Source of the DNA: Sphaerolaimus hirsutus | Taxonomy: Eukaryota; Nematoda; Chromadorea; Monhysterida; Sphaerolaimidae | Direction of reading: 5' to 3' | Assembly: GCA_964036195.1 (NCBI GenBank) | Contig: OZ038452.1 | Location: 19,789,785 to 19,853,784, forward strand | Length of the DNA: 64,000 bases | In this document: in pieces, positions 7,576 through 63,800 of the stretch | Numbering within the stretch: position 1 is the first letter of the stretch | How the letters are laid out: each line of letters begins with the position of its first letter | Notes under the pieces: generated by a model | The model's input: only the letters and a program-made list of their open reading frames with translations | Told to the model about the DNA's origin: nothing | Database searches by the model: none | Position numbers and translations under genes: made by a program

Positions 7576-7790
7576 AGCCCAACAAAACAATACACTCATG
7601 CAGATCAATTAAACCGCGTGATAGAAGAACGGCAAATAAAATGCAGCGAAACCAAAATTTATACTACAACGCAAGCATCCAATGATTCCGATGATGACAA
7701 CCAAGAGAGCGTGAATATTTCAATGGCAATACAAAGTGAATCCATAAGTCCAGGCAATGGTGAAACTACTGAGGAGAGTGCAAGGGAACC

Positions 7791-7997
7791 TACGAGCCAA
7801 AGCATCGGCAAAGCAACGAGCCAAAGCATCGGCAAAGCAACGAGCCAAAGCATCGGCAAAGCAACGAGCCAAAGCATCGGCAAAGCAACGAGCCAAAGCA
7901 TCGCCAAAGCAACGAGCCAAAGCATCGGCAAAGCAACGAGCCAAAGCATCGGCAAAGCAACGAGCCAAAGCATCGGCGCAGCTACGAGCCAAAGCAT
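7791..7997 (+). repeat. 24-bp tandem repeat, about 8.6 units
   Basis: The unit GGCAAAGCAACGAGCCAAAG plus CATC repeats with few changes and encodes the ATSQSIGK octapeptides of copy A. The unit lacks stop codons in several frames, which creates spurious ORFs on both strands. Confidence 0.9.
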
Positions 7998-8398
7998 CAG
8001 AGTTGATAGTGGGTATTTACTTTTACTCTGAAGTATGCGTAAAACTGCGGGTAAATACTCATGGGCACTGGGTAAGTACTGGGTAGATACTCATGGGTAC
8101 AATACTTTAATTGTACCAGTACCCATCTGTATGCGTACTTTTTCATCAGTACTGGGTCCTTCTGAGTATTTCAGAAAATGTAAATACCTATGCACCCAAA
8201 AAGCAAAAAGTTACCATGTATTAACTGTATGCCTGCATTAATCAATATTTTATTGTGTAATTTGTTCTTAGAATGCAGGCATCTATTGTCTAAACCTAGT
8301 ATTACTTCCCTTAAGCACCCATGTACCCCAAAAATAATAGAAATAACAGCTCCTGTGACGGGTGCTTTTGAAAAAGTTCAGTACTTATAACAACTCTG
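7998..8398. mobile_element. hAT-like MITE (GTAAATAC word), 8-bp TSD CAAAGCAT
   Basis: Ends CAGAGTTGATA… and …TATAACAACTCTG, with perfect 8-bp duplications at 7,990-7,997 and 8,399-8,406. The interior is rich in GGGTAAATACTCATGGG-type iterations. It interrupts the Ser-Gln repeat gene copy A. Confidence 0.8.
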
Positions 8399-27800: not shown

Positions 27801-30800
27801 GGGAAAGACACCACCCCACAAAATTTTAGACAACCAAATGCAATAATAATTCACGGAACGTAAACTGCTACGTATTTTGTAAACTAAATTTGGGTAAACT
27901 TTTTCAGACATTTCGACGGCTTTTTGACGGCAACAGGGACTGCGCGGCATGCACAGCCACGCAGTGGGCTGCGCAGTGCCCCGTCAGAGCACTGCATCGC
28001 AAGATCGACGCCGCTACACTGGCCGACCGAGTTCGCCATGTTTTTTAGTGGTTGTAGTGCTCTGCACAATTTCATTCCCTTATCCCCCCAATTTTAATTA
28101 CTATTTTGTGCGCTAAATCTATTTAAGTCATGTGGGCTAAGTTATGTCTAGCTTAAGTGTAGCTACATTCCACATGGCATAAGGTGAGAGGGGAATTTCA
28201 CATTTTTCACTTTGAAATGCCGCGGCGCGGCGTGTGGCCGCCTTTGAGTTCGCCGGCACACTGTTGTGACTTTCTGGGCGGTCTAAAGCACATTCCACCC
28301 TTTACTTATCTTTGGGCAGAGGCGGAGACTGATGACTGATAGGTAGGTGGCCAGGAAGCCAGGAACAATGAGCTTCACTCAAAAAATACAAAAATCCTGT
28401 TCCGCGTTCCTCCCCATGTTGACTAGATTGTCGTGCGTCATCTAGTATCGGTGGGTGGTAGGAACAGCTTCTGATAGCGCCCCAAGTGACAAGTCACAGT
28501 CCAAAAAATACTTTTCCGCCGCCCCAGCATAAATATCTCCTCGCGCTTGGAAGGGTGTGGCCATCGGGCTGAAACATTTCTCACGGGCGCTAGCTGCCCG
28601 GATAGTCACAATAGTGGGTTGCGGGGTTGGAGGTGATAAGCATTTCGCGCCCGCGAGCATTTTCTAGCTACCGTAATTTATGAATACAAAACCCCCACAC
28701 AGAGTTTCCATGTGACATGTAGAAATCATTGTACATTTCCTTTCACGCCAATGCCTTTCATTCCCACGAGCTTAATTAATCGCCTTGTATCTTAATTAAT
28801 TAACATTAGTTGTAAGCTTGTATTAATTGTTTAATTACTTGTTAGCTTAAATTGTTGTATTAGATTATGATGCCGTAATTGCCTTTGTCCATACTTTGTT
28901 CGTTCCATTCTTTGTAAATATGTGTTGCACTGCGTTGTTATCTGTTTTAAATTGCATTAGATTAAGTAGGGATTTGTAGGTAATTATGGAAGTGAGTAAT
29001 TGTCGCACCGAGTAAACTTGTAAATTATAGAGCAGCCCCATGTTGCATGAAGCCTTTTAATTACCATTGTTAGCTGATACTAATTAGTACTCTTTTCATA
29101 GGCAGCTATGTGTTAAGATTTTACTAAGTATTCATATCAGAGCTTACGTGATTTGAAAGTGATTTTGTACCTTCATAATTTTATGCCTTTTTTAGCTTTT
29201 TATTCACGTCAATTATGGTACTTTCAATTGCCTTATAAGTAGCTGAAATTGTTGTTTTTCACCCAATTCTTCGATTCAACAAAAATTGATTTTGCTTCTA
29301 CTCTGCCGCTACTGTTCTTCCATTGCCCTAAAAATAAATTCTCTTCTCAACCCAACTTGGACCCCCTTTTGTATTAGCACTAAGTACTAACTGTTTTCCC
29401 TAAGTTAGCTAATTAACAGCTGCTCTAATTGCCGCGCTGCTTGTGCTAAGTGTAAGTGCTGTGCGTGCTGCGGGAAACGGAACAGCGTGAGCCACCGAGT
29501 GGTTCACTGCACGTTCTGAAAAAACCTACCGTCTTCGGACACGTTTCCTTAAAATTTACAACACGCATTTATAATCTGGACCTCCAGGCCCAGTGCAGTG
29601 CACTGCAGCGGCAAGCGGCCAGTGAAGTGGGAATAGAGGGAAAAGTGTGGTAAACAACACTCGTGAATTGTGTAGACAAAAAACAGCTGAATACACGGAT
29701 TCATGACAGTATCAATTGCAGTCCCTGTAAAATTTCATGTGAAGAGTAAACAGTAAAGTAAAAAGTCATTGAAAATCCCAAAAGTCTAGTAAAAAAATTT
29801 AATTTGACATTTTGCATGACTGTTTACACTTTTCAGCACATCTTTCAGAGTCTTCGAGTGCTCCCTAAAGATGCACAAAGAAATTTTTAATGAGAAAACC
29901 ACTGTTTTTGTATTGAAACACTGGATTTGTGTAAAAACCTACATATTTTGAAAAAACTCAAAGCACAGAAAAGTTTTTTAAAGAAGACTTACCCATCGTT
30001 GATGATGACAACAAAGAAAGCACCGATATTTCAATCACAAAACAAAGTGAATCCACTAGTCCAAACAGCGGTGAAACTACTAGCGAGAGTGCAAGGAAAG
30101 CTACAAGCCAAAGGGTCAGCAAAGCTACGAGCCAAAGGGTCAGCAAAGCTACGAGCAAAAGGGTCAGCAAAGCTACAAGCCAAAGGGTAAGCAAAGCCAT
30201 GAGCCAAAGGGTCAGCAAAGCTACGAGCCAAAGGGTCAGCAAAGCTACGAGCCAAAGGGTCAGCAAAGCTACGAGCCAAAGGGTCAGCAAAGCTACGAGC
30301 CAAAGGGTCAGCAAAGCTACGAGCCAAAGGGTCAGCAAAGCTATGAGCCAAAGGGCCAGCAAAGCTACGAGCCAAAGGGTCAGCAAAGCTACGAGCCAAA
30401 GGGTCAGCAAAGCTACGAGCCAAAGGGTCAGCAAAGCTACGAGCCAAAGGGTCAGTAAAGCTACAAGCCAAAGCAGTGATCAAGTTGTGACTGTGAGCCA
30501 AAGCAGCCCTGAAGCTGTTCCCAGCGAATCAACAAACACGCTACACGGTATTGAACCAGAGCCACCGGACAATATGGCGGTGGTCGCGATTGGCATCTCC
30601 GCCGCGGTCCTGTTCGCTCCAGGCATCATACTTTCCATTGTTGCTATTGGTTGGTCACTGATTTACCGTATTTCTTCTACTAAAAGGGGTCATCCTATTT
30701 TTTGTCAACGTTTTTACCTGCCATTCTTCGGATGTATGCCGTAAGGTGTCAAAAAAATTTTACAGAAATGGAAATGCAAAACATATGTCACATGCCGGAA

Positions 30801-42800: not shown

Positions 42801-45800
42801 GCTCTTTACCAGATGCCCACCGCATACCTGACAGATGGGTGTGAAAAATTGTGAACATAACGTACACAAAAAGGAGTAAATCACGTAAGTAAAATACGGA
42901 CCTTCCAGAAACAGACATGCGCTGGTCCCAACGTTACAAAAACGCCTTCCACATCGGGGCGAAATTTGGCCGCAAAAAGTATGCTACGAGTGATGCTTCG
43001 CTGTGCCGCTAACAGGGCGCCTGCATTGCAAATATTACTATATACCAGTGAAAATATATGAAATTGTGTGAAGTGAGAATGTCCAACCATCACTCCAGCG
43101 CCACACGGACACTGCAGACTGGCTGTCATTTTCTACATTTCCGCTGCACACCAGCAGGTGTTTCCCGCTGGCTGAAAGACTCACATCGAAGATGATCTGT
43201 GACAACGATCTGTATTCAAGTACCTGTAACTAGGGCTCGAAATAGACTCGACTCGACTCGTGATTCAAGTCCAAAAATGGGTGGACATACCATAGTTCAT
43301 CGAAATACCCCCAGGGGGTTATTTTTTCAGAGTGAGAATTTTGAGCGGGGTATTTCGAAGGGGCGGGGGTTATTCGAGGGGGGGTTAATTATTTCGCCAG
43401 AAATTTTTTGAAATACCAGTACTAATTCGTTGTTTGTAAGGTACGCAGACGTAGATACATGCAACGATAATCGACAAGAATAAGTGTTTCTATACTTATA
43501 TAAGTAAATATGTAGGTGGTATAAACACTGTTCTAACGTCACACAGTCATTGTTTAAACGTGTGTTCTGCATTGCCTGAATAACAAACAGCAGCTTTTGT
43601 GATGTAGGTTCTGTTTACACTCAATTTGGGGGGTATTTCGAGGGGGGGTCTATTAATTCATAGTGCCCATTTTGAGGGGGGGTATTTCGAGGCGTGGGGG
43701 GCAGGGTTGGTTTTATAAAAATTCATTTTAGTAAAATTGTATAAAAATTGTATAAAAATTTTATTTTATTTTTATTTTATTCTTGTTTCATTTTATTTTA
43801 TTTTATTTTATTCCCAAAAGTCATTAATAAAATAAAATGACACATTTTACAAAAATTTTACAAAAATTGTACAAAAATTTTACACAAAATCAGAAACATG
43901 CATGCAAGGCCAGAAAAATGTTATAATTAGACCTATACATGAAAAACCTGTGACAAATTTTTCCCTTTCTTTTCAAAAGTTGCATGCAGTATGTATTGTT
44001 AGCTAGCTGCAAGTGTAAAGTTACAATTATTGATAAGAATTGTTTGCATTTTCAGTAGAAGGACTACTGGAGTGTGCTTGGCACATTTGTAAAATGTCAT
44101 GCAAAGTGTCAATTGTCATGACAAATGTAAAGTAAAGTATCAATTGTCATGCAAAATGTCAAGTGTCATGTAAAATTTCAAGCACAGTGGCAATTGTCAT
44201 GACAAATGTCATGCAAAGTGTAAATTGTGTATCGAAATCTTGTGTTTTTGTATCCATAGTATGTTTTATATCCAAGTCTTATGTTTTTGTATCCAAATGT
44301 TCACATAAGATTTGGAGTCAACAACAACATAATTTGGATACAAAACATAAGATTTTGAAATAAAACATGAGATTTGAACACAATTTGCTTGACAATTGAT
44401 ACTTTAATTTTTACATGTCATGACAATTTACACTTTACTTTACATTTGTCATGACAATTGACACTTTGCATGACATTTTACATGACATTTGACACTTAAC
44501 AATGCTTGGGACTGCCCCCAGATCCATGAAAAAACAGGTAGAGACTCAAGCAATGAGACAAAATTTTACAAAAAATATGAATTTTTATACAATTTTACAA
44601 AAATTCGAATTTTTATACAATTTTTATTTTTATTCTTAAATTTTCCATTTTATTTTATTTTATTTTATTCTTGAATATTCCATTTTATTTTTATTTTATT
44701 TTTATTTTTTTCTGAGATTTTGCCAACCCTGGTGGGGGGTATTTCAAGGGAGGGGGGGGGGTTAATTCGAGGAAATACGGTATATGACCAAGTGTTTTTG
44801 TGTATCTTGATGTTGGGCTGTTGGATTGAACACTGTTGCAATTTAGATTTCATAATGTGTACGTGAAAACATTGCTTAAAAAACCGGTATCTAAAATTTC
44901 CGCAAGGCATCATACCAAAAAGGTAACGCGTCCAACTCGAATTGAAAATTTGAGTTTGAAAAAAATTGTGTTTCGATCGAGCCCTAAGATGTTGTGTATC
45001 TTAATGTAAGAGCGTTTTTACGATGGGAAAAACACCACCCCACAAAATTTGAGACAAACAAATGCAATAATAATTCACGGAACGTAAACTACTATGTATT
45101 TTGTAAACTAAATGTGGGCAAACTTTCTCAGACATTGTGACGGCTTTTCGACGGCAACGGGGACTGCACGGCATGCACAGCCCTGCAGTGGGCTGCGCAG
45201 TACCCCGTCAGAGCACTGCATCGCAAGATCGACGCCGCTACATGGGCTGACCGAGTTCGCCATGTTTTCTAGTGGTTGTAGTGCTCTGCACAATTTCGTT
45301 CCCTTACCCCCCAATTTTAATTACTATTTTTGTGCGCCAAATCTATTTAAGTCAAGTTGGCTAGGTTATGTCTAGCTTAGGTGTAACTGCATTCCACATG
45401 GCATAAGGTGAGAGGGGAATTTCACATTTTTCACTTTGAAATGCCGCGGCGCGGCGTGTGGCCGCCTTTGGGCTCGCCGGCACACTGTTGTGACTCTCTG
45501 GGCGGTCTAAAGCACATTCTACCCTTTACTTATCTTTGGGCAGAGGCGGAGACTGACGGCTGATAGGTAGGTGGCGACCGGAAGCCAGGAACAATGAATT
45601 TCACTCAAAAAAATACAAAAACACTGTTCCGCGTTCCTCCCCATGTTGACTAGATTGTCGTGCGTCATCTAGTATCGGTGGGTGGTAGGAATAGCTTCTG
45701 ATAATGCCCCAAGTGACAAGTCGCAGTCCAAAAAATACTTTTCCGCCGCCCTAGCATAAATATCTCCTCGCGCTCGGAAGGGTGTGGCCATCGGGCTGAA

Positions 45801-48800
45801 ACCTTTCTCACGGGCGCTAGCTGACCGGATAGTCACAATAGTGGGTCGCGGGGTCGGAGGTGATAAGCATTTCGCGCCCGCGAGCATTTTCTAGCTACCG
45901 TAACTTATGAATACAAAACCCCCAAACTAAGTTTCCATGTGACATGTAGAAATTGTTGTACATATCGTTTCACGCCAATGCCTTTCATTCCCGCGAGTTT
46001 AATTAATCGTTCTGTATTTTAATTAATTAACATTAGTTGTAAGCTTGTATTAGCTGTTTAATTACTGGTTAGCTTAAATTGCTGTATTAGATTTTGATGT
46101 CGTAATTGCCTTTGTACATACTTTGTTCATTCTATTTTTGTAAATATGCGTTGCACTGCATTGTTATCTGTTTCAAGTCGTCTTAGATTAAGTAGGGATT
46201 TGTAGGTAATTATGGAAGTGAGTAATTGTCGCACCAAGTAAACTTGTAAATTATAGACTAAGCCCCATGTCGCATGAAGCTCTTAATTACTGTTGTTAGC
46301 TGATATTAATTAGTACATTTTCCATAAGCAGTTGTGTTACGTACGATTTTACTAAGTGCTTACATCAGAGCTTATGTGATTTGAAAGTGATTTTGTAACC
46401 TTGCCGTTTTTATGTCTTTTTAGCTTTTTATTCAAGTCGATTATGGTAGCCTTGATTGCCTTATAAGTAGCTGAAATTGTTTTTCCCCCCAACTTTGTCG
46501 ATGCGACGAAAGCTGATTTTGCTTCTACTCTGCCGCTACTGTTCTTCCATCGCCCTAAAAATAAACTCTCTTCTCAACCCAACTTGGACCCCCTTTTTGT
46601 ATCAGCACTAAGTACTTACTGTTTTCCCTTAGTTAGCTAATTAACAACTGCTCTAATTGCCGCGCTGCTTATGCTGAGTGTAAGTGCTGTGCGTGCTGCA
46701 GGAAACGGAACAGCGTGAGCCACCGAGTGGTTCATCACACGTTCTGAAAAACCTACCGTCTTCGGACACGTTTCCTTAAAATTTACAACACGCATTTATA
46801 ATCTGGACCTCTGGGCCCAGTGCAGTGCACTGCAGCGGCAAGCGGCCGATGAAGTGGGAATAGAGGGAAAAGTGCGGTAAAAAACCTCGTGAATCGTGTA
46901 GTCGAAATACAGCTGAATACACGGATTCATGACAACTTGGTAGCAGACGCGAGTGGTTTGCTTAATTCACTTCAGTGAACGGTGCGGCGCCTGATCAACG
47001 CCAAGCCGTTAAGTGATAAGTAACAAACAATCTGTCGCGCCGGGTGGAAACGCTGCGGTCAGGAGGGCCAGCGTCGATCCCAGGGTCAGTTGAGGAAGTG
47101 TGGAGAGCTGCAGAACAGCTACAGAAGCGCACGCGCCGAGAGGCGGCTTTGCGCAGGGCACAGCAGACTGCGGACGCGCAGGACGCTGAGGTTGAACAGG
47201 TAAGAGTTGAAGCAGGTGCGCAGGAAGCGGAAGCGGAAGCCGAGCGCGCACAGGAAGCAGCGACTTGGACCAGACGCACAGAGGATAGCACTCCCGTTGT
47301 CCGGCCAGTGCTGCAATTTGGAATTGCACATGCAGGAACAGGCGGCAGCCGTTGGGATACGCCGGCTTGCGCGCCAGGTGCGCTACCGACTGGGGCGGCC
47401 TGACTAGCGTCCAGTGGAGGCACAGAAACAGAACGCCCACCAGATAGTCCGCTCCTGCGACCCGACAGGCCAGTAAGTGCTGAGCCCGGGCGAGAGCAGC
47501 GGAAATCAAGTAAGTGGGGTTTATTTCGACGATTGTGGGGAAAAAGCGGCCGTAGCTCCCCGGTGTCGACAGGGTCTGGATCACAGGCTGATTCAGCAGG
47601 GTACGCTGGTGAAGACGAGCCCGTGAGTTCGTCTGCATACCAGCGTAGAAGTGGTGAGACTTCTGTAAATCTAATTGATACCCCAGTAGTGATCCCAGAT
47701 ATAAATATTGAATTTCCCTCGTTAGCCGAAGAGCTCGAAGAGGCGGAAAATTCATTGGGGGAGCTTCAATTAAGTGCCCCGCGAAGTTCTTCCACACCAC
47801 GTGAGCTTGCGTCTGCGCAAGGCTCGATTGAAAGCTGTGTCTCTTCGAACAGAGCACGGCGTAGAATCGTAGGACCGTCTCCCATAAATCAAAGCAGAAT
47901 GACTAGCACCCCGCCCCCAGGATCGAGTGTGACGACCGCGCCGGGCACGCTCACCACGGCGACGACTACCCCGGCGGCGACCAACCAAGTGACGCCGGGC
48001 CAGATCTTGACGGCGGCGACTGTGGCGGACCCGGGCAGGGAAACCACTGGGTACACTAGAGAAGGTTGGACCTTCCCGGGCATGATACAACTATTGCACC
48101 AGTGGTCTGGGGAACTTACTCGCGCGGGACCAGCGGCGATTTCAGTTAATGCTTCCACAGCAGATAAAAATAAGCTACAGGCCATTAGGCTAGGCTTGAG
48201 TATGTACACCAGCGTAGGTAACCCCAGCGCGCTGGAGCAGTCCACCACTCAATTTTTGGCGTTTTGTTCTAACAGGGGATTAATTCCACCCATTGCATCG
48301 GCAGCTAATGCTACCTTAGGCGCAGGAACGGCCCCTGGGAACACAACCGCGCAGACTGTGCCCCCGCCGGCGAGTGTAAGCGGATCAGCGGGCGGCAGTG
48401 GAGCGGCGCCTGCGCCTGCAAACGCTACGGCTCAGCCAGCTACCAGTGTAATCAATTTGGCGGGACAGCCGGGTCCCTCCTCCCCAGGATCGTCAGGATC
48501 GATTTCACCTGCACCTAATCCTACGGATCCAGACTATCTGGCGCAGCACCAGGTGCCGCACGGCACGGCTGCTACGCTGACCGCCCTGGCTACGCAGTGC
48601 GATGCATTCACAGGAAGGGCTGACAAGAGTTTCAAGGACTGGAGACGTAAGTGGGATATTTTGTGTGATGCGCTAGGTGTTTCAATGCGCTCTAGGCAAA
48701 AGTTGCTGCCTATCTTTTTACAAAAGAATGCTAATTCTATTTTTGTAGCTAGAAGGCGGGAACTGCGCGCACTTGATTACAAAGCCATGATGGACCGTTT

Positions 48801-51800
48801 GGAAGAACTGTTTGCAAATCCGAACGCTCAGCATCATGCACAACGCGAGTTTATTGAATCGACTCAAAGCCCTACTGAATCTGTGTTGGACTGGGCAACT
48901 AGATTGGAACGTGCGGTAAAGCGCACATACCCAATGCTGCATTCCGCCCAAAGGGAAGGCATGTGCATCACTAAGTTTCACCAGGGGTTGGACAAGGACA
49001 TTAGGCGCAATCTGGCAATGCATGCCAATATAAGTTGGAAGGAATTAGTTGATAACGCGCGCATGCAAGAAAGCTACAAAAATCTTGAAACCGTTCAGAA
49101 GGAACATGCGAAGTCGGCCAGCGAGATCGTCGCCGAGACGTCGAACCAGGTCATGGAGCGCATCATGGCCATGAACCTGCACCCCTCGGTCCAGTCGATG
49201 GAGGCCGAGAGTGCCGAGAATGCGAAGCTCAAGGCCAAGGAACAGGCGCTTGACGAACGACAGAAAAAACTCGACGCCCAGGAAGCTAAGATGATGGGCG
49301 CGCCGCGCCCGAGGCGTGAGTTACCGCCCAAGAGGTTTGAAAATGGATGTTGGGAATGTGGATCTCCTGATCACTTTCGCTATCAGTGTCCAAATAAGCC
49401 CCCTCCCAAGCCATCTGCTGGCAACAATAGCAATCAGCGTGGCCGCGGAGGCGACTTTCGTGCGCGCGGTAGAGGTGGCGGCCGAGGGCGAGGCCGTGGA
49501 CAGGGAGGACAATATCCACAAAACTTTGGGTATCCAGGTGGATGGGTACCGATGCAATTAAGTCAACCCATGACCGTGCCTTCCTCGCAGATGATGCAGC
49601 CTGTGTACGTCCAGAGCCAGCAGCCCGCGGCCATCGGATGGCACCCGCAGCCACAACCGGCGCAACGGCCGTTGGAATCGCAGCAAGGCCAGAGCAGTAG
49701 CGTGCCGCTGTTGAACCCGACAACAGTGACACAGGTGGGTGAATGCACTTACAAGGCCGTGACCGAGTCATAGCTGTCTTACGCTAGAATTCTCTTCCAT
49801 CATGATCAACTATTGACATTGCAAGGGCTGGAACCGGAAGCCCCTGAAGAGGAGGAGATGGAGGAGCAACCTGTAGCTAGTCTTCAGTGTAAAATGCATG
49901 CGCTCATGGTAGATCGGGAACAGTGGATTAGCCACTGGGCGTATCAACGCGAAGCCACGTCAATCCTATTTCGTACCAGTTGGTTAGATTATCTGAGGCG
50001 CACTGCAATGCATGACCTGAAGGATGAAGATTGTGTGGTGCTCCCAGACTGTCGCCCGCATGACGACCACAACGATACGCTCACCAGAATCGAGTGGAGG
50101 GTTTTGCGTGACGCCCCATTAGACCCATTTCTAAATGAGCCCCCTATGATTTTGTCCCCGCGTACGTTCTCGAGCACATGCGTTGATAAAATGGCCGAAT
50201 TTAGAGACAAAACGTCTGCAGTGCCTCGCCAGCGAGCTTATTCTGAACCACCGTATAATAATCAAGTCTTTGGCGCCTTGTTTACCGTGTTCACCATTGC
50301 CGCTGTGATGGCGTGCTTGAGCTTGATGCCTATGGCGGCGGCCTCGACGATGCCGGACACGCCACTGCTGTGCAGCGACTTGACCGATCACTATGACTTG
50401 TACACCTACCCCGACTTGCCTAACTGCACCGCGTTAGTCGATTCTGCTGTGTCGTTGACTAAGCCGGTCCCCCTGAAACTCACCATTTACAAACGCAATA
50501 TGGTAGAGTATCGCGCCACTGCGTATCGATGTGTAGCGGCCACGCGGTCGGCTCATACATACCAGAACTTTTGGGGTGACGTCACTTTGGAACATTTTGA
50601 CTAGCAGCCGCGTGCGGTAGATCCCTCGGAGTGTGAGAGCATGATGAAGTACCGTAAGTGCAACGACGGTGCGCTTCAGCCAGTGGACGAGCTGAGCAAC
50701 GCATGGGACACTCAATACCCGACAAACGTGAGTTATTCGGGGCACGGGCTGTACTGTTGCGGCTGGTTAATTACCAAAACCCCGCAGTGTGGGTTGTTCA
50801 AGGGAGATGTACGCATGCGCTACGGCGCCAAGGTCATGCAAAGTACGCTAGGAGAAGTGTCAAAGTGTAATTACGAGGAGGGCACCTGTACCCTGCCCGA
50901 CGGTAGCCAATTAGTCTGGAAACCAAATCCAAAGGCTGAATGCCCCTATGAGAAATGGCAAGAAATAGCTGGGCTAATTAGACAAGATATTTGGCTCGCG
51001 CGTGATCACACTTTGGCATTGTCATTTTGAGCAAAAGAAGAAATTATTTCATGTGGTAAAAAATTATGGAAATCAGACCAGGATATTGTCGTGGCACCGT
51101 TCGAAATCCCCCCAATTAGGTATGTGCGGGAGAAGCGTCGCGCAGTACGCCCCGGATTTGGCGTAGTGGACACCGGTCACTTGGCCGCAGCGATGCAAGC
51201 GGTGTACGAGACATCTGAGCAAACCATGCGTGCGCAGGCCGTGTCTACTTGTAGGCATGTGCAACATTTCCAGGAACTTCTCCGCCTAGCTATGACCGAG
51301 CACCCGACGACCACAGCGCGCTGGTACATGCGCGACAATGAGATTTTGGCCAAGGCGGCGCCAGACGGATTTCTAGTGCATAAGTGTTTTGCGGTAAAGA
51401 CTTATCAGTTGGGCACCAAAACAGGTAAAGGCGCGTGCCACGCTACGGTCCCTATTCGAATGAAATTACATGGACAGAACGTGACCTTACATTTGGATAC
51501 AATTACAAATGCCCTTCTGTTCCAGCCGGTTATGGGAACGTGCACAAATCGCCACAACCGCGTGTTGAAATTGCATGGGCAGTGGTATAAGTATTTACCT
51601 GAGAAAGGCGCCCTGGAACATATCCCCGTTTACAACACCCACAGTTTCCCACACAGGTGGCAGCTCGAACGACCGACGGACGTGCACCATCAGATCTTTG
51701 CCGCAACGACAATGTACAATTTGTCTGAGCTGCTGCCGACCACCACGCTGAACGACGTGTGGCACTCATACGCGATTGTGCGGCGCGTGCATGGAATGCC

Positions 51801-54800
51801 GACGCATGCAGTTGATGGCAGTTTACAATCGCATTGATTAATGGCCAGGTCAATGGTGAGTGTGGGATTTTGGGACTTTGACGCCGTGAGGTCATGGCTG
51901 CAGATATGGATTTACCTGGTGTGCGCCATAGTAACTTGCCAGTATTTATTAGCAGCTTTGTTAGCCGCCGCGCCCCCGGCAGCTACGACGCTAATCAAAC
52001 GTGTGCGCCGACGATTGCGGCGGGAGTCAAGGCCGCTAATTACCAGACACAGAGACGCAGGTAAGCGTAGCTTTATGAAAAGCTATGACGGCCGACTGAC
52101 CGTGTTGAATCCGACAACAGGTGCGTCTGAGTGCGCACCAGATGACACGGTAACGGTACAGATGTTTCCATCAATTGAATATAATCACCAATTAGAAATG
52201 GCGGAAATCTCCATGAGCCCATCGGTGGAGAGAATCCGAATGATTACGCTATCAAAAGATGAACAGGAAAATATAAAGTCTGTCGTCGCGAGGCGGAACG
52301 GGCCTGTGCATGTCTACTACAGTCCTGCAGTGCCCGTGTGCATGGACGGCATCATGTACCACAGATGTTTGCTGGACACTGGCGCCATGCGCTCGTTATG
52401 CAGCAGAGATGTGTTCCAGGAGCATCGACATGGACACGACGCCGTTGAAGAAACTTCTCCCATTTCCCACATGCGATGCGCTGCGGATTCCAAGCTAATG
52501 ATAATTGGTCAGTTGGAAATGCCCATTGAAATTGGGGGACACACATTTTGTGTCGTTTTTCAAGCCATCGATGGCCTGGTTGACAATTTAATTTTGGGCG
52601 CGGATGTGCTGCGGCACATGATAATAGATATGCCTGCGCGCCTCTTAAAAATCCCCTCAGTAGGCGTCAGCATTCCATTTGATAACCACAAGCCGGACGT
52701 GCAGATCCGCGCAGTGTTTGCATTAGTCACAGCGGCTACCGAAATCAAGGCAAGACATGAAGCAATGGTGCCGGTGCGCCTATCAGCTCCAGTTAGCTAT
52801 CGTACATTTACTGTCACTGGGCTGGAATCCGTAAATTTGAAGGATGGGGTAGTCGCCGCATCCGCGGCATATGAAACAAGTGACGAGGTATTTCTAATGA
52901 GGGTCGCAAACGTGCGTGATCAACCGGTTACTTTGCAGATGGAACAAAAAATCGGTTTGGTTGAGCCCGTCGATTGTGTTCTGAAAGTCAAAGCCGGCGA
53001 CCCCCCTGAGGAATGGATACGGCAGTGCCGCGCCAACGAAGCGACAGAGCCGGCATCTTCAAGTGTTCCAGAAAAGGTAATTGAAGACCAATTAGGTGAG
53101 CCATTGCATGTGAAATGTCCAGATGGACACGAAATGGAATTTTCTGTGCCCCAAACATTGTCGGAAAATGAGCGCAAGGAACTTGCAGCCGTACTTTTGA
53201 AGCACAAAGGCGCTTTTGCGAGACACAAGTCTGACATAGGGTATAGCGAATTGGTTGATTATCAACTGCAATTAACCGATCGAAAACCGATTGCGTGCCG
53301 CATGTATCGTTGAGCCTGGATGACCAACAGTACTTAGAAAAGCACCTGCGCTGTCTAATTGAACATGACATAATTGAAACAAGTACAAGCCCATATTGCG
53401 CTCCCACATTAGTCGTTTCTAAACCTGATGGTTCTAAACGCATGGTCATTGATTACAGGCGATTAAATTTGGTTTTGCATGCGCCGCAATTCCCATTGCC
53501 GAGGCTGGATGACACCGTGGATGCACTCAGCAACTGCAAGTTCTTTTAGCAGCGCCGATATTAATCAGGCCTTCTATAACATTGCATTGCATCCCGACGA
53601 CAGACACATCACTTCGTTCCGTAATATTTTTGGTCAATTCCAATTAAAGAGATTACCTATGGGATTAAAATGCTCACCAAGTTTGGCACAAAGGTGTTTT
53701 GAGCTTGCAATGGCGGGATTGATTCATCGCAATGTGCTATTGTACATTGACGACTTGTTAATTTACAGTCAGGACTGGAAAACCCATTTAAGTGACATTG
53801 GCCAAATTTTGGATCGACTGATCAAAAACAACTTCAAAATTAGTCCCCGTAAGTGTTTTTTCGCACGCATCACTGCGGTAAAATTTCTGGGCTTTATGAT
53901 CGGCCGCGAGGGCATTTGCATTCCCATGGACAAACGCAATATTATCTCAGAATGGCCCCTCCCGAAAACTGTCAAGGAAGTCAAAGGGTTTTTGGGAGCA
54001 GTGGGATTTTTCAGATGCATGATACACAGGTGCGCCGAAATAGCAGTGCCGCTATCGAATTTGACACGCACCGGTCCGCGCGAGAACTACGATGGAAATG
54101 TGCCGGTAGATCTCAACGATAACCCTGAGGCTCTGAGAGCCTTCTTCCAATTAAAAGAAATTTTATTACACAGCCCCTGTTTGCAATACCCGAACCCAAA
54201 TAAAACATTCATCGTAATTACAGATGCTTCACAAATTGCGGTCGCCGGAGTGCTGGTGCAGCGAGCCGACGAAAAATCTGGACTGCATGCGTGCGCTTTC
54301 TACAGCCGGAAGTTGACTGAGGTTCAGAGCAGATGGCCCGCCATCACTCTAGAGGCTTACGCAATTTTTGAGAGCGTTCGAAATTGGCATTGCTACCTGG
54401 CGGGACGCCCCTTTGAAGTGTGGACTGATGCCAAAAGTATCCCTTGGGTGAAGAACCCCAATTTGGAAGCTACACCACACGCCCGCATTGCATAAGTTTG
54501 CGTTGGCCATTGCCCCGTATCAAATTACATTCAAGCACTTGAAAGGAAAGTGCAATGAGCTCGCAGATGCTCTGTCCCGAAGGCGCGATGCGCCAATAAC
54601 TTTCGACGAGAAATTAGAACTTGACGAGGCATTTGAGCAATTTGCACTCATTAAAATATCGCACAATAAAACTGTCGCGACGCAGACCGCAATCGACCCG
54701 TGGGATACGGTAGCTACTGTTTCCAGACGCGCGCCCACCAAGGAACCAATGAGGACACGCGCGCGTGCGAGGGCGGAGTCTGCGGCGCGTGACCACAACT

Positions 54801-57800
54801 CTGGGACAATGGACACGCGACAGCCAGCAAACAATGGGGTGGAGCCAATTACCGGACTCACTACCGTAGGTCCACAAACAATGGCTGGTGGCCCCGCGGC
54901 TACCGAAGTGCGCGTCAACGGTTTTCACACGGATCACGTTTTGCCCCCGTTTGTCCCCATAATTGAATTAAAACGCTTGCAAATGCAAGAGGCGTATATA
55001 GTGAATTTGATGGAAGTTTGTAAGGATGCACCTGGACAATGTGTGCCACCGTTTTTCATTGATCAATATGGAATCATGCGAAAAAGGGCTGAGGCTTCAA
55101 TAGTACCGGGGATCAAGTTGTATGATCCCGTGTGTATTCCAGCCTCATTGTGCCCGCTAGTATTCGAACTAGCGCACAATCACCCTACAGCGGGACATCT
55201 GGGAATAATGAAAACTTTTGAAAGATTACAGGAATTTGCGTGGTTCCCAAATATGCGCCCCAAAAGCGCGCATTGGGTCGCCTAGTGCCCTTTGTGTTGT
55301 GCGCGAAAAGGACTCAGGCAGTCGATGCAGACCTTGATGGCGTGCCGGAAAATCGCGCGATCTCCCGGCGATGTCATCGCAGTCGACGCCGTTGGCCCGC
55401 TGCCATGCACGCGGCGCGGGCATAAACACGTGTTGGTTTTCGTTGACCAGTGCACGCGATTTGGTATCGCCGTGCCGGTACCCGATATCCGGCAGGATAC
55501 TGTAGCGTTTGCATTCTTGCTACACATTCTGCCCATATTTAGCGTACCCGGCGCCATTCTGAGCGATAACGCGCCAAGCTTTGTCGAAGGGGCATTCAAA
55601 AGATTGTTATTGTATTTCAATACCCTTCAGCATCGTTCATTTGCGTATATGCCAAAAGGCAACGGAATGGTGGAGCGCCGAAACGGTGTTCTGATGGAAA
55701 TCGTGTCCCATTATGTGAACCAAACTCATTCTGATTGGGGTTACCACTTAGGCGCCGCGGTGCACGCGTATAATACGTCGAAACACCCGGCAATGGGCAC
55801 CACGCCATACGCACTTTTGTTCGGGCGCCCAGCCGCGTCGCTATGGGAAAGAATGTTGACGCCCCCCGCGCCCGGCGCAATGCTACCCGAGTCGACAGAT
55901 AAGCACGGCGAACCTACCGAGCTCGCGCAGCATCTCTCGGCGGCGCGCAATGCGGCGCATACCGCGCTTAGGAATGCTCAATTGAAAGAGCAATACTACG
56001 CCAATCGCCGCGCCCGTCATTTGAATTTGAAGCCGGGCCAAGCGGTCCGTATTTTCACTCCGCGTTTGACCGATCAGACCGGCCCTTGTAAAAAATTTGC
56101 TGCTTTCTTTTTAGGCCCCTACGAATGCATTCGCTATGCTCATCCGCTTGTAACTATTTATAACGATACTAATGATAAGATTTATGTAGTGCACGCAGAC
56201 CGCTGTAAACCAACGCTTGAAAACATTATCCCCACATGTACGCAGAATCTCGGCCCTACTTAGACTCTCATTGCGGTAAAGCCCTTAAGTGGCTATCGAC
56301 GTAGCCACTGAATAAATTAATTAATTGTGTTCCCGTAATTCGAATAATTCCCCCATCACGTAAGTTTGATAAACTTGTGATCTCAAGTGCGTGTGACTGT
56401 GTGTTCGTGTGTGTGTGTGAGTGCGGTTGTAAATTTGCTGGTACACTAGTGGGCTCCGAGAGTCCACTGCAGTGCCGGTGATTGATTGTGATTAATTGCA
56501 CTCTTCCTTAAAACTTAAAAACATAACATGGCCGGAAGGAGCATGGGCGCCAAACGACAGCACAACGGCCGGCGGGCTAGCGCCGCGGGCTCGGGCTTCA
56601 CGAAAGCCACCACCCAACGTGGCGAGCCGGGCGCCACCATACCGCCCCCCAAGGTAGATCACCAGTGGGGTGAGAACCAGCGGCCCCCGCCGCCCGTCTA
56701 CGCGAAGCGGATGTTCGCCGGCTGGGTGGACCGTGTCTACTGGAGACACGACACTGCGGACCGGGAATACTACCAAGCCCACGTGCGGCTTCACGACGAT
56801 GCGCTGGCCGAGCTGGCCGAGAACGACAAGTGGAACGACGCCGACAACGTGTACCCGTTCTTCACCTACTCGACCAACATCGCGCGCAGCGCCCGCGATC
56901 GCCGCACGTCGGTCGTGGTGGCGCAGTACGCCAACATCAACGAGAAGTACGGCCCGGAGCTGCACTTGCCGCTCGTCAGACACGGTATGAAGTTTACGGC
57001 AAGGTATGTGCAGCGTTGCACTGCTAAACCCGACTATTGGGAGTTCTTTGACATTAAATTGGACATGAACAAAAGCGCTAGCCCCCTATTGGTGGCAGTG
57101 CCCGTCGTCGTAACCGTACAGGGACGCGCCCCGGCCGACCATGAGTATGACGCGCAGCGCGACGAGGTCGGCTACCAGCGCTACTCAACAAACTGGCGCT
57201 CGCTACGGCTGCGAGTTGCGTTCACGCCCCGTCGCTACAAGGAGCTGCCGGAGTTGGGCGCGGGCGAGCGCAACAATTGCGGCCCGGAGCGCTTGGCGTT
57301 CGCGCACCGCGAATACACCATGCCCGGCAACCCGATCCCGAGTGCAGGTATGTTGGGGATTGCGCACGTCGAGTTTCACGACCTGAACAACGACGTGTTT
57401 GACAACGTCTATTACGCACATGCGTATGGCGTTTTCTTGCTCGAAAAATCAGCGCTGGAAGATTTTTACTTCCACGACCCCCACGAGGTGTCATTGAACC
57501 GGGTGCACCCGCCGCACCTGCGCACCAAGTACGTGATGCTGGCCGCAGCATACATGTACCACGAGTCTTTGTTGCGTTTCCGAGCGGCACGCGCCACGGC
57601 GGTGCGCGCGCTAATTGAGTGGGAAGCGACCGACGCAGGTACCAAGGCATGCATCACGATCAACAGGCCGGACCTGGCCGATGCCGTCAACGACGAGCAA
57701 GAGCAGATGGACGAGCAGCAGAGACGCGCGAACGCGCAAACCAACGCTCTACCTCAGCTGCTGGTCGGTGCCGGACCGATGTCGGTGCTGACGTTGACCA

Positions 57801-60800
57801 AGGCGATGCCCGACGACGACAGGCCCGACCCGACGCAGCCAAAGTTGCAACTGCGAGTGGCCACTTTAGAGGTAAGTCCGGAGCAGGCTGTAATTGTGGG
57901 CAATTTGGACTTGAAGTTGAGCCAGGCGGCGCTCCCGGCCGAGCTCGAGAACGGCGACTACATGGTGCGCACCACCAATGAGTCGCCCAACTATGTGCAA
58001 ACCATGCGTTCCTTGCAAGGCGCTATCGAGCGCCTGAACGAAGGTTGGAGACCGTCCAACATACGCTCGGGCAATGTCCTCAAACTGGGTGACCAGATCG
58101 CCATTGCCATTGTGTATGATGACCGGTTGTCCGACACGTTCACCCAGTGGTCGCACATCCGCGCCACGGCCGCGCCCCTAGAAGACGAAATCCGTCAGGG
58201 CACGTCCAAAGCGCTGCTGGTGAGTGAGCCGGGCGAGTTCAAGCCACTGGGCGGCCAGGCGAAAACCCTGGCGGCCGTTTTAGCCGCCTTGAAGCTGGCG
58301 TGGCCGCTGTTGCTCATGTGCGACTCCCTGTTCGGCACTGGCAAGACCACTGTGCAGAACCAGGTGGCGTACATGTGCTCGTTGTACTTCAACCAGTTTA
58401 ATGGTCGCAAATTCCCAGACAGTAATTCCGCCCTTTCCTCCGACATCACTTCCAACGCCAAATACCACTCCACCATCGTCACGTGCACCGTCAACTCGGC
58501 GACGGACGAGAGCGCTAGGCGCGCTGTGCAAAACATGCGGCGCACCGGCTGCGACGGCGTGCACGAGGCCGTGCGCCGCCTACTGCTGGGCCGCAAGCAG
58601 TGGTCCGAACTGCCCGCCGCGCAAGTCAAGGACATGCTGCAAGTGCCCGGGTACGTTGAATATTTGAAATTGAGAGCGGTGTTCGCTGTAAGGGTGCTGA
58701 GCCCCCTGTTGGAAACCCAGGAGGTGTACAGCGACCTCGCTGTAGACGACCTGCCCGCGTTGCACAAAATAGCGCAGGATACCCCATTCTCGGTCGCACG
58801 GGCCGACGCCCAGTGGGTAGAGCTGGTAGACCAGTACTGGGCAGTGAAAACTGAGTACGAGACCGTGCACTCCATCGTCGCAGGTCCCAACCAAACCCCC
58901 CAGCAGGTGATGAAGGCGCTAATGGAGCAGGTGCCGCACCTAGTCGTCACTGGCGAAGATGACGATGAAGAATGGGATGACGACGACGACGAGGTCGTAG
59001 TGGGTCGCACGGGCGTCGATGTGAACGACCCGGACCTCGAGGACACGGACTGGGGCCGCGTGCTGCGCCGGGCCGCCAGGAGGTACGCCAAGGGCACCGT
59101 CAAGCTGCACAAGTATGTTCTGGATTTGTTGCAGCCGGGTCAGATCCACGTGACTGTCGATTCGACACATGATGTGCGCATCAAGCACATCAGGTACTGT
59201 GCCATGATAGTGGACGAGGCGTCGCTCGTCACGAACATCTCCATGGTCACAGCGTTGAACCCCGTGTCGCTCCCCCACAACGGCTTAGTCTTGCTGTTCG
59301 GCGACAGCAAGCAACTCACCCGAAAAGTTCAGACCCAGCGATGGGTTGAACCCTTCCTTAATCCCTCTCCATCGTTGATTGATGGACTCACAGCTTCCAA
59401 AATGTGCCCCCTGCTGCGGCTAGAAACGGTTTTCCGCGGGCACCCCCAGTTGATCAACGCCAACTCGCACGCGGCGTACGAAGGCCGGCTCCGCCCCTAT
59501 CATCAGAAATCGCCGTGCAGGGATGACAACTTGCTGCGCGTGCCGGGCGACCACGTCCCAATCCCGCTGTCCACGGTCATCAACCACACCGGACTGGAGA
59601 CCAAGGAGGGCACGTCGACCGTCAATGTACCCGAGCAGCTCATCGTAGTGCAGTTGGTTAAACATTTCGTGGAATTGGCGGCCCAAGACGGCGTGCCCTG
59701 GAGTGACTTGAGTCGGGCGGATGCCATTTTGGTGGTCACTTTTTATGCGGCGCAGCAGCGCGCGCTGATCGACAAATTGGCAACCGACCCGTCGTTGAAG
59801 CACTACGGGCGAGAGTTCTGGGCGACTCGAGTGCTCACCGCCGACAAAGCACAGGCTAGAGAAGCTGAGGTGACCATCGTGTCGTGCGTGCGCAGCAGCG
59901 AGCCGCCCGCGCGCGACAGGTTGACCACCCAGTATTCTCAGCAGACCACTCGAGTCGGCTTTGTGGCTCAGCTGGAGCGTGGAAACGTGGCCACCTCCCG
60001 CTCGCGTTGCGCCAGAGTCGTAGTGGCCAACGTGGAGACCTTGCTGTGGTCTGACTTCTTCCACATTTTCTTTTCATATGAATTCGCTTCGGCTGGTCTT
60101 TACCAGTATCACGCAGAGAAAATCTGGGGATCCAGGATATGGACCTGGTCGCCCGACTGGAGGCCACAGGCCCACTGCCCCGAGCACCAGTACGACAACG
60201 ACTACGAAGCCGCTCAGACTGAGCTCGCCCAGCCGGACGTCAATATGGACGAGCCCGTGGACGTACAAGACGCGCTCCAGCCGGCGGACGAGCCGCTGCC
60301 GTACGACCCCACGGACGAAGTCGAGGACATCGCCAGCACCTCCGATGGCGATGGCGACGACGCCACATTCTCCGCGCCGATGAACCCGTGGCGGTCGCTG
60401 CGCCAGCGCCGGCGCCGGCAAAAGAGGACAACATGCAGCCCGAGGTCGCTACCGAAGAAGATGTGCCGATGGAGGGCACTAACGAGGGAGTTTGAGTAAA
60501 CCCAGGACAATTTTTGTTTTGAAAGTTTCTTTTGGAAACCGATAACGTAATGGAAACTATAAACAACAGTGAAACAAACAAAACAATTAACTAAGTATCT
60601 CGAAATCACACACCAAATAGTTTCCAAGACGTTCGCTGCGGCACCGAATGGCCGAGTTTTGTCCCCCCGAGTTGACAAATGTAACCGCCGCCCCCAGTTG
60701 ACCGTCCAAAATTGGCACTATTCTGGACAAAAAACAAGTTTTTGTAAATTTGAAAAGAGTAAAATAATTTTGAAAATGGAAATACCTTAAGAATCCAATT

Positions 60801-63800
60801 GGCAACTCCATTATAAAGTCCCGACTGCAAAAGGCAGGGCAGTTGATTAATTCCCATACCGTCCTCAGCTTATTATTGCATTTTTGTAATTGCCAGCCAC
60901 GTTCCGGAATTTGATTTTCGACTGTGAAATGCACGCAAGCCATTTTTGCATGCAAATAACCACTTTTGAAAATTTCGAAAAGATGAACAACTTTTATATT
61001 TTACAAAAAATTTTGTGCATGCGATCGTAAAAATAATCACCAGTCACACCTCAATAGTTTAGCCAGGAGGTAAACCGCAATGGCTGGTGGGTTGTAAGAG
61101 CGTTTTTACGATGGGAAAAACACCACCCCACAAAATTTGAGACAAACAAATGCAATAATAATTCACGGAACGTAAACTACTATGTATTTTGTAAACTAAA
61201 TGTGGGCAAACTTTCTCAGACATTGTGACGGCTTTTCGACGGCAACGGGGACTGCACGGCATGCACAGCCCTGCAGTGGGCTGCGCAGTACCCCGTCAGA
61301 GCACTGCATCGCAAGATCGACGCCGCTACATGGGCTGACCGAGTTCGCCATGTTTTCTAGTGGTTGTAGTGCTCTGCACAATTTCGTTCCCTTACCCCCC
61401 AATTTTAATTACTATTTTTGTGCGCCAAATCTATTTAAGTCAAGTTGGCTAGGTTATGTCTAGCTTAGGTGTAACTGCATTCCACATGGCATAAGGTGAG
61501 AGGGGAATTTCACATTTTTCACTTTGAAATGCCGTGGCGCGGCGTGTGGCCGCCTTTGGGCTCGCCGGCACACTGTTGTGACTCTCTGGGCGGTCTAAAG
61601 CACATTCTACCCTTTACTTATCTTTGGGCAGAGGCGGAGACTGACGGCTGATAGGTAGGTGGCGACCGGAAGCCAGGAACAATGAATTTCACTCAAAAAA
61701 ATACAAAAACACTGTTCCGCGTTCCTCCCCATGTTGACTAGATTGTCGTGCGTCATCTAGTATCGGTGGGTGGTAGGAATAGCTTCTGATAATGCCCCAA
61801 GTGACAAGTCGCAGTCCAAAAAATACTTTTCCGCCGCCCTAGCATAAATATCTCCTCGCGCTCGGAAGGGTGTGGCCATCGGGCTGAAACCTTTCTCACG
61901 GGCGCTAGCTGACCGGATAGTCACAATAGTGGGTCGCGGGGTCGGAGGTGATAAGCATTTCGCGCCCGCGAGCATTTTCTAGCTACCGTAACTTATGAAT
62001 ACAAAACCCCCAAACTAAGTTTCCATGTGACATGTAGAAATTGTTGTACATATCGTTTCACGCCAATGCCTTTCATTCCCGCGAGTTTAATTAATCGTTC
62101 TGTATTTTAATTAATTAACATTAGTTGTAAGCTTGTATTAGCTGTTTAATTACTGGTTAGCTTAAATTGCTGTATTAGATTTTGATGTCGTAATTGCCTT
62201 TGTACATACTTTGTTCATTCTATTTTTGTAAATATGCGTTGCACTGCATTGTTATCTGTTTCAAGTCGTCTTAGATTAAGTAGGGATTTGTAGGTAATTA
62301 TGGAAGTGAGTAATTGTCGCACCAAGTAAACTTGTAAATTATAGACTAAGCCCCATGTCGCATGAAGCTCTTAATTACTGTTGTTAGCTGATATTAATTA
62401 GTACATTTTCCATAAGCAGTTGTGTTACGTACGATTTTACTAAGTGCTTACATCAGAGCTTATGTGATTTGAAAGTGATTTTGTAACCTTGCTGTTTTTA
62501 TGTCTTTTTAGCTTTTTATTCAAGTCGATTATGGTAGCCTTGATTGCCTTATAAGTAGCTGAAATTGTTTTTCCCCCCAACTTTGTCGATGCGACGAAAG
62601 CTGATTTTGCTTCTACTCTGCCGCTACTGTTCTTCCATCGCCCTAAAAATAAACTCTCTTCTCAACCCAACTTGGACCCCCTTTTTGTATCAGCACTAAG
62701 TACTAACTGTTTTCCCTTAGTTAGCTAATTAACAACTGCTCTAATTGCCGCGCTGCTTATGCTGAGTGTAAGTGCTGTGCGTGCTGCGGGAAACGGAACA
62801 GCGTGAGCCACCGAGTGGTTCATCGCACGTTCTGAAAAACCTACCATCTTCGGACACGTTTCCTTAAAATTTACAACACGCATTTATAATCTGGACCTCC
62901 GGGCCCAGTGCAGTGCACTGCAGCGGCAAGCGGCCGGTGAAGTGGGAATAGAGGGAAAAGTGCGGTAAAAAACCTCGTGAATCGTGTAGTCGAAAAACAG
63001 CTGAATACACGGATTCATGACATTAATACTTATTGTATTTAGCACTAGTGATAATATTGACTGATATAATCCGAACCTTGTCATTTTCCGCCAACGTGAC
63101 GATCGAAAGTGTCTGCAAATCGTTCACACTCCACACGTGCACGCACGCCCTATGTCTGGCATCACCACTAGCACACTGGCCGCTAGCCACCAATGCACTA
63201 CCCTTAGCTCGAGCTTCACCACTGACTGGTGCCCTACCCAAACCCTGTAAAATGCCGTGTAAAAAGTCAAATGTCATGCAAAGTGTCAATGATCATGTAA
63301 AATGCCCTGTAAAAAGGCAAAAAGAACGTTTGCCATTTTACAGGGCATTTGACATGAGTTTTGACACTCTGCATGACATTTGACCTTTACAGGGCATTTT
63401 ACAGGGTCTGGGAGTGCCCCCTGAGCTCTGTTGGTGCGCAGTGACGCAGCGCACAGTGTTCGTATGATGGGTGTAGTAGCGCTGAGCTCCATCTTTGAGC
63501 GCGTGCAGCACGCACAACCCCTCCACCGCGTAGAGCAATTCGCCGGTGCCGTTGGTGCCAGGCACGCAGTGCAGGCCGGCCGATGTATTCAAGCCGAACA
63601 CGTGCTGCAGGTGCAGGCCCTGCAAATGGTTAGTCAGTTTGGACGCAATATCATTCTCTAGAACGGATTTGTTTTTGGACGTACAGTTATCGGTGTTTTG
63701 GGCGCGTCACCACTAGAAGCCACCAATGGGGTGTCGCGGGGCCGCAGAATGCGATTGAAACCCTGCAATATCGGAGGTTTATAATTTTTCAATTCAACAT

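What the first reader, a model, noticed from the sequence alone, without database searches (positions are those of the whole stretch)
45005..63022. LTR retroelement ordered gag - env-like - pol - SF1 helicase
Retroviruses and env-bearing Ty3/Gypsy or BEL elements normally place env after integrase. Here a signal-like segment, glycosylated Cys-rich region and membrane anchor lie between gag and protease in one frame, and a 1,323-codon helicase occupies the usual env position. LTRs, TSD and primer site all define one 18-kb unit, so this is not chance juxtaposition. I know of no described family with this layout, though I could not search.
Basis: partly seen in the sequence, partly recalled or inferred. 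Interest (0 to 1): 0.92.

Follow-up and report, generated by a model that had tools for sequence, protein, structure and literature searches.

The report
Retrovirus-like element with extra helicase
This is an 18,000-base retrovirus-like jumping element, probably of an animal genome, that carries a borrowed virus entry-protein gene in an unusual place and a large RNA-helicase-like gene; the first trait was already known from flatworm elements, while the second looks new for this class.

Summary
Two 1,930-bp LTRs (9 mismatches, TG..CA ends, TTAA duplication) bound one 18,018-bp unit. Inside lie gag, an env-like region, protease-RT-RNase H-integrase, then an intact 1,323-codon ORF with six SF1 helicase motifs. 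RT is Ty3-like. Two separate env pieces hit the Monjiviricetes fusion-glycoprotein profile (E 1.9e-5 and 0.028), co-linearly but below its cut-off. "No described family" is wrong for gag-env-pol: planarian Burro elements have an in-frame env with mononegavirus-type similarity there (PMC6431247 section 7). I found no described LTR element with such a helicase (openly licensed papers only); insect LINEs with viral SF1 helicases are known (PMC5563155). An in-frame 18-bp repeat encoding LNPTT flanks the env cassette. Other full copies could not be examined: the genome search did not complete (14 tries), so whether the helicase belongs to the family or to this copy is open. Verdict: new variant of a known kind.

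The parts
45001..45004 (.). target site duplication TTAA, left
45005..46934 (+). 5' LTR, 1,930 bp, TGT...ACA; AATAAA at 46560
46938..46947 (+). putative primer-binding site TGGTAGCAGA, 3 bases after the LTR
   Evidence: sequence; tRNA identity recalled
47404..49770 (+). gag frame (789 codons; first in-frame ATG at 47899); PNMA-like capsid, CCHC motif at 49348-49389
49709..49726 (+). left copy of the 18-bp in-frame repeat encoding LNPTT
49774..50601 (+). env-like piece 1: leader of about 164 residues, hydrophobic segment from 50266, start of Cys-rich part; no Pfam match
50605..51027 (+). env-like piece 2, Cys-rich; PF24664 E 0.028
51031..51834 (+). env-like piece 3; REKR furin-type site at 51127; PF24664 E 1.9e-5
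51838..52080 (+). env-like piece 4: membrane anchor at 51892-51972 and basic tail; no Pfam match
52103..52120 (+). right copy of the 18-bp in-frame repeat
52121..53310 (+). protease (LLDTGAMR at 52369-52392) and linker towards RT
53311..54492 (+). RT (YIDD at 53743) and RNase H; frame changes near 53311, near 53540 and near 54490
54452..55282 (+). end of RNase H and integrase H2C2 domain
55286..56263 (+). integrase core (D-D-35-E) and GPY-like C-terminus
56528..60499 (+). intact UPF1-like SF1 helicase ORF, 1,323 codons plus stop, motifs I-VI
61093..63022 (+). 3' LTR, 1,930 bp
63023..63026 (.). target site duplication TTAA, right
27781..29708 (+). solo LTR of the same family, TSD GTAT

Best explanation
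A Ty3/Gypsy-type (Metaviridae-like) LTR provirus that has taken up two foreign modules: a negative-strand-RNA-virus-type fusion glycoprotein in frame between Gag and protease, as in Burro, and a UPF1-like SF1 helicase as a separate downstream ORF. Shown: the unit, the order, the domains, the shared frame, the intact helicase, the broken gag-env-pol. Inferred: intact family members make Gag-Env-Pol in one frame; the hydrophobic segment sends the glycoprotein part across the ER membrane and the anchor returns the chain to the cytosol; the element's protease cuts at the repeated LNPTT sites and furin cuts at REKR; the helicase is made from a second (spliced or subgenomic) message and works on the element's long RNA, most likely protecting it from host RNA decay or small-RNA silencing, or unwinding it for reverse transcription. 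This defective but young copy was probably moved by proteins from intact relatives.
For: LTRs, TSD and solo LTR. RT best match Ty3, E 4.2e-35. Frame statistics. PF24664 in two separate pieces: starts 136 codons apart in the window, 146 positions apart in the profile. Hydrophobic segment, sequons, Cys, REKR site and anchor in the expected order. Helicase: AAA_12 E 1.8e-23, human UPF1 E 4e-5, TIGR00376 E 1.6e-9 though far below its cut-off, six motifs. Helicase GC3 0.78 against 0.54 for gag-env-pol, z 14.7, a sign of separate origin. 18-bp repeat at both env edges: 3 of 3,768 random window pairs scored as high. 0.69 nonsense changes expected since insertion from LTR divergence, 5 or 6 seen, P 7.6e-4 and 8.6e-5, which points to damage before the last move and mobilisation in trans. 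Precedents: Burro; SF1 helicases in LINEs, one with weak silencing suppression; retroviral genomic RNAs with a stop between gag and pol need protection from NMD (PMC10309623, passage).
Against: Both PF24664 scores lie below the curated cut-off of 27 bits (12.8 and 23.3), and piece 3 also matches rubber elongation factor weakly (E 0.028). The two single-sequence folds failed (pLDDT 28.8 and 33.5). The integrase core fits foamy-virus integrase (7.3e-12) better than Ty3 (3.8e-6). No other full copy was seen. Stops within env mean that no continuous product exists here. That gag, env and protease share one frame would happen by chance about one time in nine. The helicase role is not tested at all; its N-terminal 594 residues match no Pfam family. 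No relative for the helicase in the protein collection, and none for any of five queries in viral contigs.
Confidence: 0.7

Rival explanations
1. It is simply a shorter member of the Burro family, whose layout is already described; the helicase is one more accessory domain.
For: Burro: gypsy-like, giant, gag with CCHC knuckles, env in frame between gag and PR with mononegavirus fusion-glycoprotein hits, several accessory domains (PMC6431247 section 7).
Against: The reported Burro extras (BIR, TRAF/MATH, BCL2, ankyrin, dUTPase-like) gave no Pfam match in the element pieces scanned; 18 kb against more than 30 kb; no Burro sequence was available to compare; the host is unknown.
Confidence: 0.3
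2. The helicase is a passenger: a host or viral gene picked up by this one copy or a few, not a working part of the family.
For: Very different GC3 (0.78 against 0.54); no other full copy seen; it is the only large intact ORF.
Against: It lies between pol and the 3' LTR as one uninterrupted ORF with an ATG in a favourable context (A at -3, G at +4; the rule is recalled) and six motifs; no poly-A run is seen by eye after it and only chance-level short repeats near it.
Confidence: 0.25
3. The env-like part is not a captured fusion glycoprotein but another membrane protein with a spurious profile match.
For: Scores below the curated cut-off and a weak second family on piece 3; nothing significant among solved structures (none; best E 0.79, unrelated GTPases).
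Against: Two separate pieces hit the same one of 24,736 families, in order and with about the right spacing, with signal-like segment, Cys-rich part, REKR and anchor around them.
Confidence: 0.1
4. Env is not made as part of a polyprotein but from a spliced message, as in most retroviruses; gag ends at the 49771 stop and pol is reached by read-through or by splicing over env.
For: A TAG ends the gag frame at 49771, and a donor-like CAGGTGGGT lies at 49732-49740 (sequence).
Against: Joining that donor to the AG at 52120 would shift the frame (my arithmetic); in Burro the region is in one ORF.
Confidence: 0.35

Closest known systems
Burro (giant gypsy-like LTR elements of planarians; PMC6431247, section 7 read whole)
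   Same: Gypsy-like pol, gag with CCHC, env with mononegavirus fusion-glycoprotein similarity in frame between gag and protease, accessory domains, large size
   Different: Burro is over 30 kb, with BIR, TRAF, BCL2 and dUTPase-like domains in a polyprotein of about 4,900 residues; no SF1 helicase in that section; here 18 kb, with helicase as a separate 3' ORF
Anakin (BEL/Pao with chuvirus glycoprotein; PMC7642597, passages read)
   Same: LTR element with a captured jingchuvirus-type glycoprotein
   Different: BEL/Pao, not Ty3; the figure legend lists the glycoprotein last, after integrase; the word helicase does not occur in the text
Lokiretroviruses (as described in PMC9040795, passages read)
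   Same: Env with similarity to Mononegavirales fusion glycoproteins
   Different: Dual RNase H, vertebrate hosts; here one RNase H was found
TRAS and Jockey LINEs with viral SF1 helicase (PMC5563155, passages read; also named in PMC5803895, passages)
   Same: Retroelement with captured SF1 helicase; weak silencing suppression reported for one
   Different: Non-LTR elements; helicase of positive-strand RNA-virus type, not closest to UPF1
Vesta and Juno of bdelloid rotifers (PMC5408684, passages read)
   Same: LTR elements with captured env or enzymes in the 3' ORF
   Different: Enzymes are DEDDy exonuclease and GDSL esterase; helicase occurs once, in the references
Errantivirus (named in PMC12440569 part 1; details recalled)
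   Same: Ty3/Gypsy with a captured env; 4-bp duplication (recalled)
   Different: Env after pol (recalled)

Membership tests
Ty3/Gypsy (Metaviridae) | PR-RT-RH-IN order | tested here: met
Ty3/Gypsy (Metaviridae) | RT closest to Ty3 RT | tested here: met
   phmmer against PDB only: Ty3 4.2e-35 and 9.1e-35, next group 4.6e-24; no tree; integrase core is closer to foamy virus
Ty3/Gypsy (Metaviridae) | TG..CA ends, 4-6 bp duplication | tested here: met
   TTAA, and GTAT at the solo LTR
Burro | env in frame between gag and PR | tested here: met
   same frame, but interrupted by stops
Burro | mononegavirus-type fusion glycoprotein | tested here: met
   PF24664 in two pieces, both below curated cut-off
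Burro | BIR, TRAF/MATH, BCL2, ankyrin domains | tested here: not met
   no Pfam match in the element pieces scanned
Burro | dUTPase-like domain between PR and RT | tested here: inconclusive
   no Pfam match; the Burro domains were annotated with the more sensitive HHpred
Burro | sequence relationship of RT to Burro | not testable with these tools
   no Burro sequence found in the tools
Anakin | BEL/Pao pol | tested here: not met
   RT matches Ty3
Lokiretrovirus | second RNase H after a tether domain | tested here: not met
   at Pfam sensitivity only H2C2 is found after the first RNase H
Troyka | CG..CG ends, 3-bp duplication | tested here: not met
   TG..CA and 4 bp; definition from the abstract
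UPF1 proper | Cys/His-rich N-terminal zinc domain | tested here: not met
   only three Cys in the first 560 residues
SF1 helicase | motifs I, II, III, IV, V, VI | tested here: met
   GTGKTT, DEAS, GDSKQL, VFRGHP, LTADKAQARE, NVATSRSR; motif names recalled; the part from before motif II to VI aligns to UPF1

The most novel reading that the evidence does not exclude
An infectious LTR element line that makes Gag, a membrane-threaded envelope and Pol as one chain cut by its own protease at duplicated sites, and that encodes its own UPF1-like helicase to shield its 16-kb RNA from nonsense-mediated decay or small-RNA silencing: a retrovirus-like counterpart of the helicases of large positive-strand RNA viruses.
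Probability: 0.2. Interest if true: 0.8.

Novelty: new variant of a known kind. Interest (0 to 1): 0.52.

Why it matters
It would extend the rare gag-env-pol order beyond Burro and be, as far as my searches reach, the first LTR retroelement with an SF1/UPF1-like helicase. That makes testable whether retroelements take up helicases to protect or process long RNAs, as nidoviruses carry one (recalled) and as proposed for LINE helicases (PMC5563155, passages).

Tried and rejected
Protein searches with the helicase, whole and residues 560-1210, gave no protein at E 0.001 or better among 7,992 and 7,988 scored candidates (by the tool's description the words of the first came only from residues 1-500). 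The RT piece gave 1 hit of 2,014 candidates, 28% identical, a JGI protein without name. Five viral-contig scans (env piece 3, helicase, RT, gag, integrase) matched a few patterns but no relative was confirmed. Structure predictions of env piece 3 and of the helicase core were too poor for a fold search, so none was run. The gag ORF against solved structures gave only a weak match of its basic tail (E 5.1e-4, 'C protein') and a knuckle at E 0.25. A codon-preference test was weak for gag-env-pol because it was trained mainly on the helicase. Splicing over env from the donor-like site at 49735 was considered; it breaks the frame. Uneven damage (all lesions outside the helicase) is no proof of selection: with 8 lesions spread evenly the chance is about 6% (my arithmetic). 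The stop at 47401 stands in the context TGA-CTAG, a read-through context (recalled), but there is no ATG in that frame between 46935 and 47899, so I make nothing of it. Papers opened that had no helicase-bearing LTR element in the passages seen: PMC10675990, PMC5803895 (LINEs only), PMC7175516; PMC8797187 was beside the point. Troyka, lokiretrovirus and Anakin were rejected as homes (see membership test).
Full report
Unit. The LTRs at 45005-46934 and 61093-63022 are 1,930 bp each, differ at 9 positions without gaps, begin TGT and end ACA, and TTAA stands on both sides. A third LTR of the family stands alone at 27781-29708 (BLAST rows 91.4 and 91.8% identical) with the duplication GTAT. So the 18,018-bp unit is one insertion of a repeat family with 4-bp duplications.

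Coding content. Stop-to-stop frames and Pfam give gag (PNMA E 1e-4, below the curated cut-off; CCHC knuckle weak, E 0.021, but with the motif intact), the env-like region, an aspartyl protease (E 0.0071 and 0.011, below cut-off; DTG present), RT (1.3e-22), RNase H (1.1e-28), integrase H2C2 (4.6e-11), integrase core (1.1e-8) and the helicase (AAA_12, 1.8e-23). The frame that runs from gag through env to protease has 4 stops in 1,969 codons, against 115 and 116 in the other + frames. Integrase catalytic residues have D-D-35-E spacing. RT fits Ty3 best among solved structures (4.2e-35 and 9.1e-35, against 4.6e-24 for the next group). The integrase core fits foamy-virus integrase (7.3e-12) better than Ty3 (3.8e-6), which leaves its exact place open. 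No tree was built.

Env-like region. A hydrophobic segment (from 50266), a Cys-rich part with sequons, a REKR site (51127) and a second hydrophobic segment (51892-51972) followed by a basic tail lie in that order. Pieces 50605-51027 and 51031-51834 hit PF24664 (Monjiviricetes fusion glycoprotein) at profile positions 191-229 and 337-471 (E 0.028 and 1.9e-5, repeated); pieces 49774-50601 and 51838-52400 hit nothing. Both hits are under the curated score, and piece 3 also has a weak match to another family (REF, E 0.028), but order and spacing of the PF24664 hits agree (136 codons apart in the window, 146 positions in the profile). Solved structures gave nothing significant.

The 18-bp repeat. 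The best direct repeat inside the element joins 49709-49726 with 52103-52120 (17 of 18 identical, BLAST E 0.59). It stands at the two edges of the env cassette, 2,394 bases (798 codons) apart, and reads LNPTT on both sides; the one mismatch is silent. For 200-base windows drawn at random from the element, 3 of 3,768 pairs scored as high; the windows were chosen after seeing the repeat, so this is not a clean probability. Two readings: duplicated protease cleavage sites (a Pro after the cut is usual for retroviral proteases, recalled), or the scar of the cassette's insertion. The silent mismatch leans to the first.

Helicase. ORF 56528-60499 (1,323 codons and stop) is intact and has six motifs. 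Solved structures matched by the whole ORF: 5 of 6 are human UPF1 (RENT1), 1 a '5'-3' RNA helicase-like protein'; by the core: 5 of 10 UPF1, 2 of 10 yeast NAM7 (its UPF1, recalled), 3 of 10 the helicase-like protein, best E 4e-5. NCBIfam gives the IGHMBP2 family (1.6e-9, far below its cut-off) and RecD2 at 0.083. It lacks the Cys/His-rich zinc domain of UPF1 (three Cys in the first 560 residues), and its first 594 residues match no Pfam family. GC3 is 1032 of 1323 (0.78), against 1559 of 2870 (0.54) in gag-env-pol (z 14.7); the rest of the window averages 39% GC with a maximum of 47.5% over 45 1-kb windows. So the helicase very likely has another origin than gag-pol, and probably did not come recently from this host (inference).

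State of the copy. In-frame stops lie at 47401, 49771 (possibly the natural end of gag), 50602, 51028, 51835 and 55283; the frame changes near 53311, near 53540 and near 54490. From the LTR divergence 0.69 nonsense changes are expected in gag-env-pol; 5 or more has P 7.6e-4 and 6 or more 8.6e-5. Leaving out 47401 as well as 49771, 4 or more has P about 0.005 (my arithmetic from the same mean). The copy was probably already defective when it moved, carried by proteins of intact relatives (inference).

Mechanism. Most likely Gag-Env-Pol is read as one chain in intact relatives, threaded through the ER membrane at the env part and cut at the LNPTT sites; a spliced env message is the main rival. 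For the helicase the precedents are LINE helicases, one with weak silencing suppression, and the authors' own speculation about NMD-like RNA control (PMC5563155, passages), and the need of retroviral RNAs with a stop between gag and pol to avoid NMD (PMC10309623, passage). None of this was tested here.

Literature. Burro elements of planarians were reported with env in frame between gag and pol and mononegavirus fusion-glycoprotein hits (PMC6431247, section 7 read whole). Anakin is a BEL/Pao element with a chuvirus glycoprotein, and a later survey found no clear capture by Gypsy, though Gypsy fragments often flank such glycoproteins (PMC7642597 and PMC10084718, passages). For a helicase in an LTR element I found nothing in searches, of whose lists I opened only some papers; they cover openly licensed PMC papers only, so absence is weak evidence. 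Read in part only: PMC12440569 (outline and part 1 of 5), PMC10309623, PMC5408684, PMC9040795, PMC11410931, PMC10675990, PMC5803895, PMC7175516 (passages).

What could not be done. The host genome search did not complete in 14 tries, so I saw one full copy and one solo LTR only. The host is not identified; an EML-like exon (E 1.5e-4, below cut-off) hints at an animal.

Judgement. A real and well-bounded Ty3-type, Burro-like provirus with a UPF1-like helicase: new variant of a known kind. Interest 0.52, rising if the helicase proves to be a conserved family part.

Noticed in passing
33811-34840 and 43702-44731: Two 100% identical 1,030-bp copies of a hAT-like non-autonomous DNA transposon (ends CAGGGTTGG...CCAACCCTG, 8-bp duplications CTCAGCGT and GTGGGGGG); very recent movement. 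The hAT label is recalled from the 8-bp duplication and ends.
   Followed up: partly
7573-8031 and 29935-30744: Two related ORFs with a 24-bp coding minisatellite (KATSQSIG / KATSQRVS), 97% and 95% matches between units, the second with a hydrophobic C-terminal part; perhaps part of an unclassified repeat.
   Followed up: no
21063-24078: Complex satellite array with units of about 115-145 bp and a 350-bp unit, then 30-bp and 27-bp units.
   Followed up: no
15180-15638: Minus-strand ORF similar to the second beta-propeller of EML proteins (E 1.5e-4, below cut-off), a host gene clue.
   Followed up: no
47401-47407: Stop in gag's upstream frame stands in TGA-CTAG context, a read-through context (recalled); the frame has no ATG between 46935 and 47899.
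   Followed up: partly
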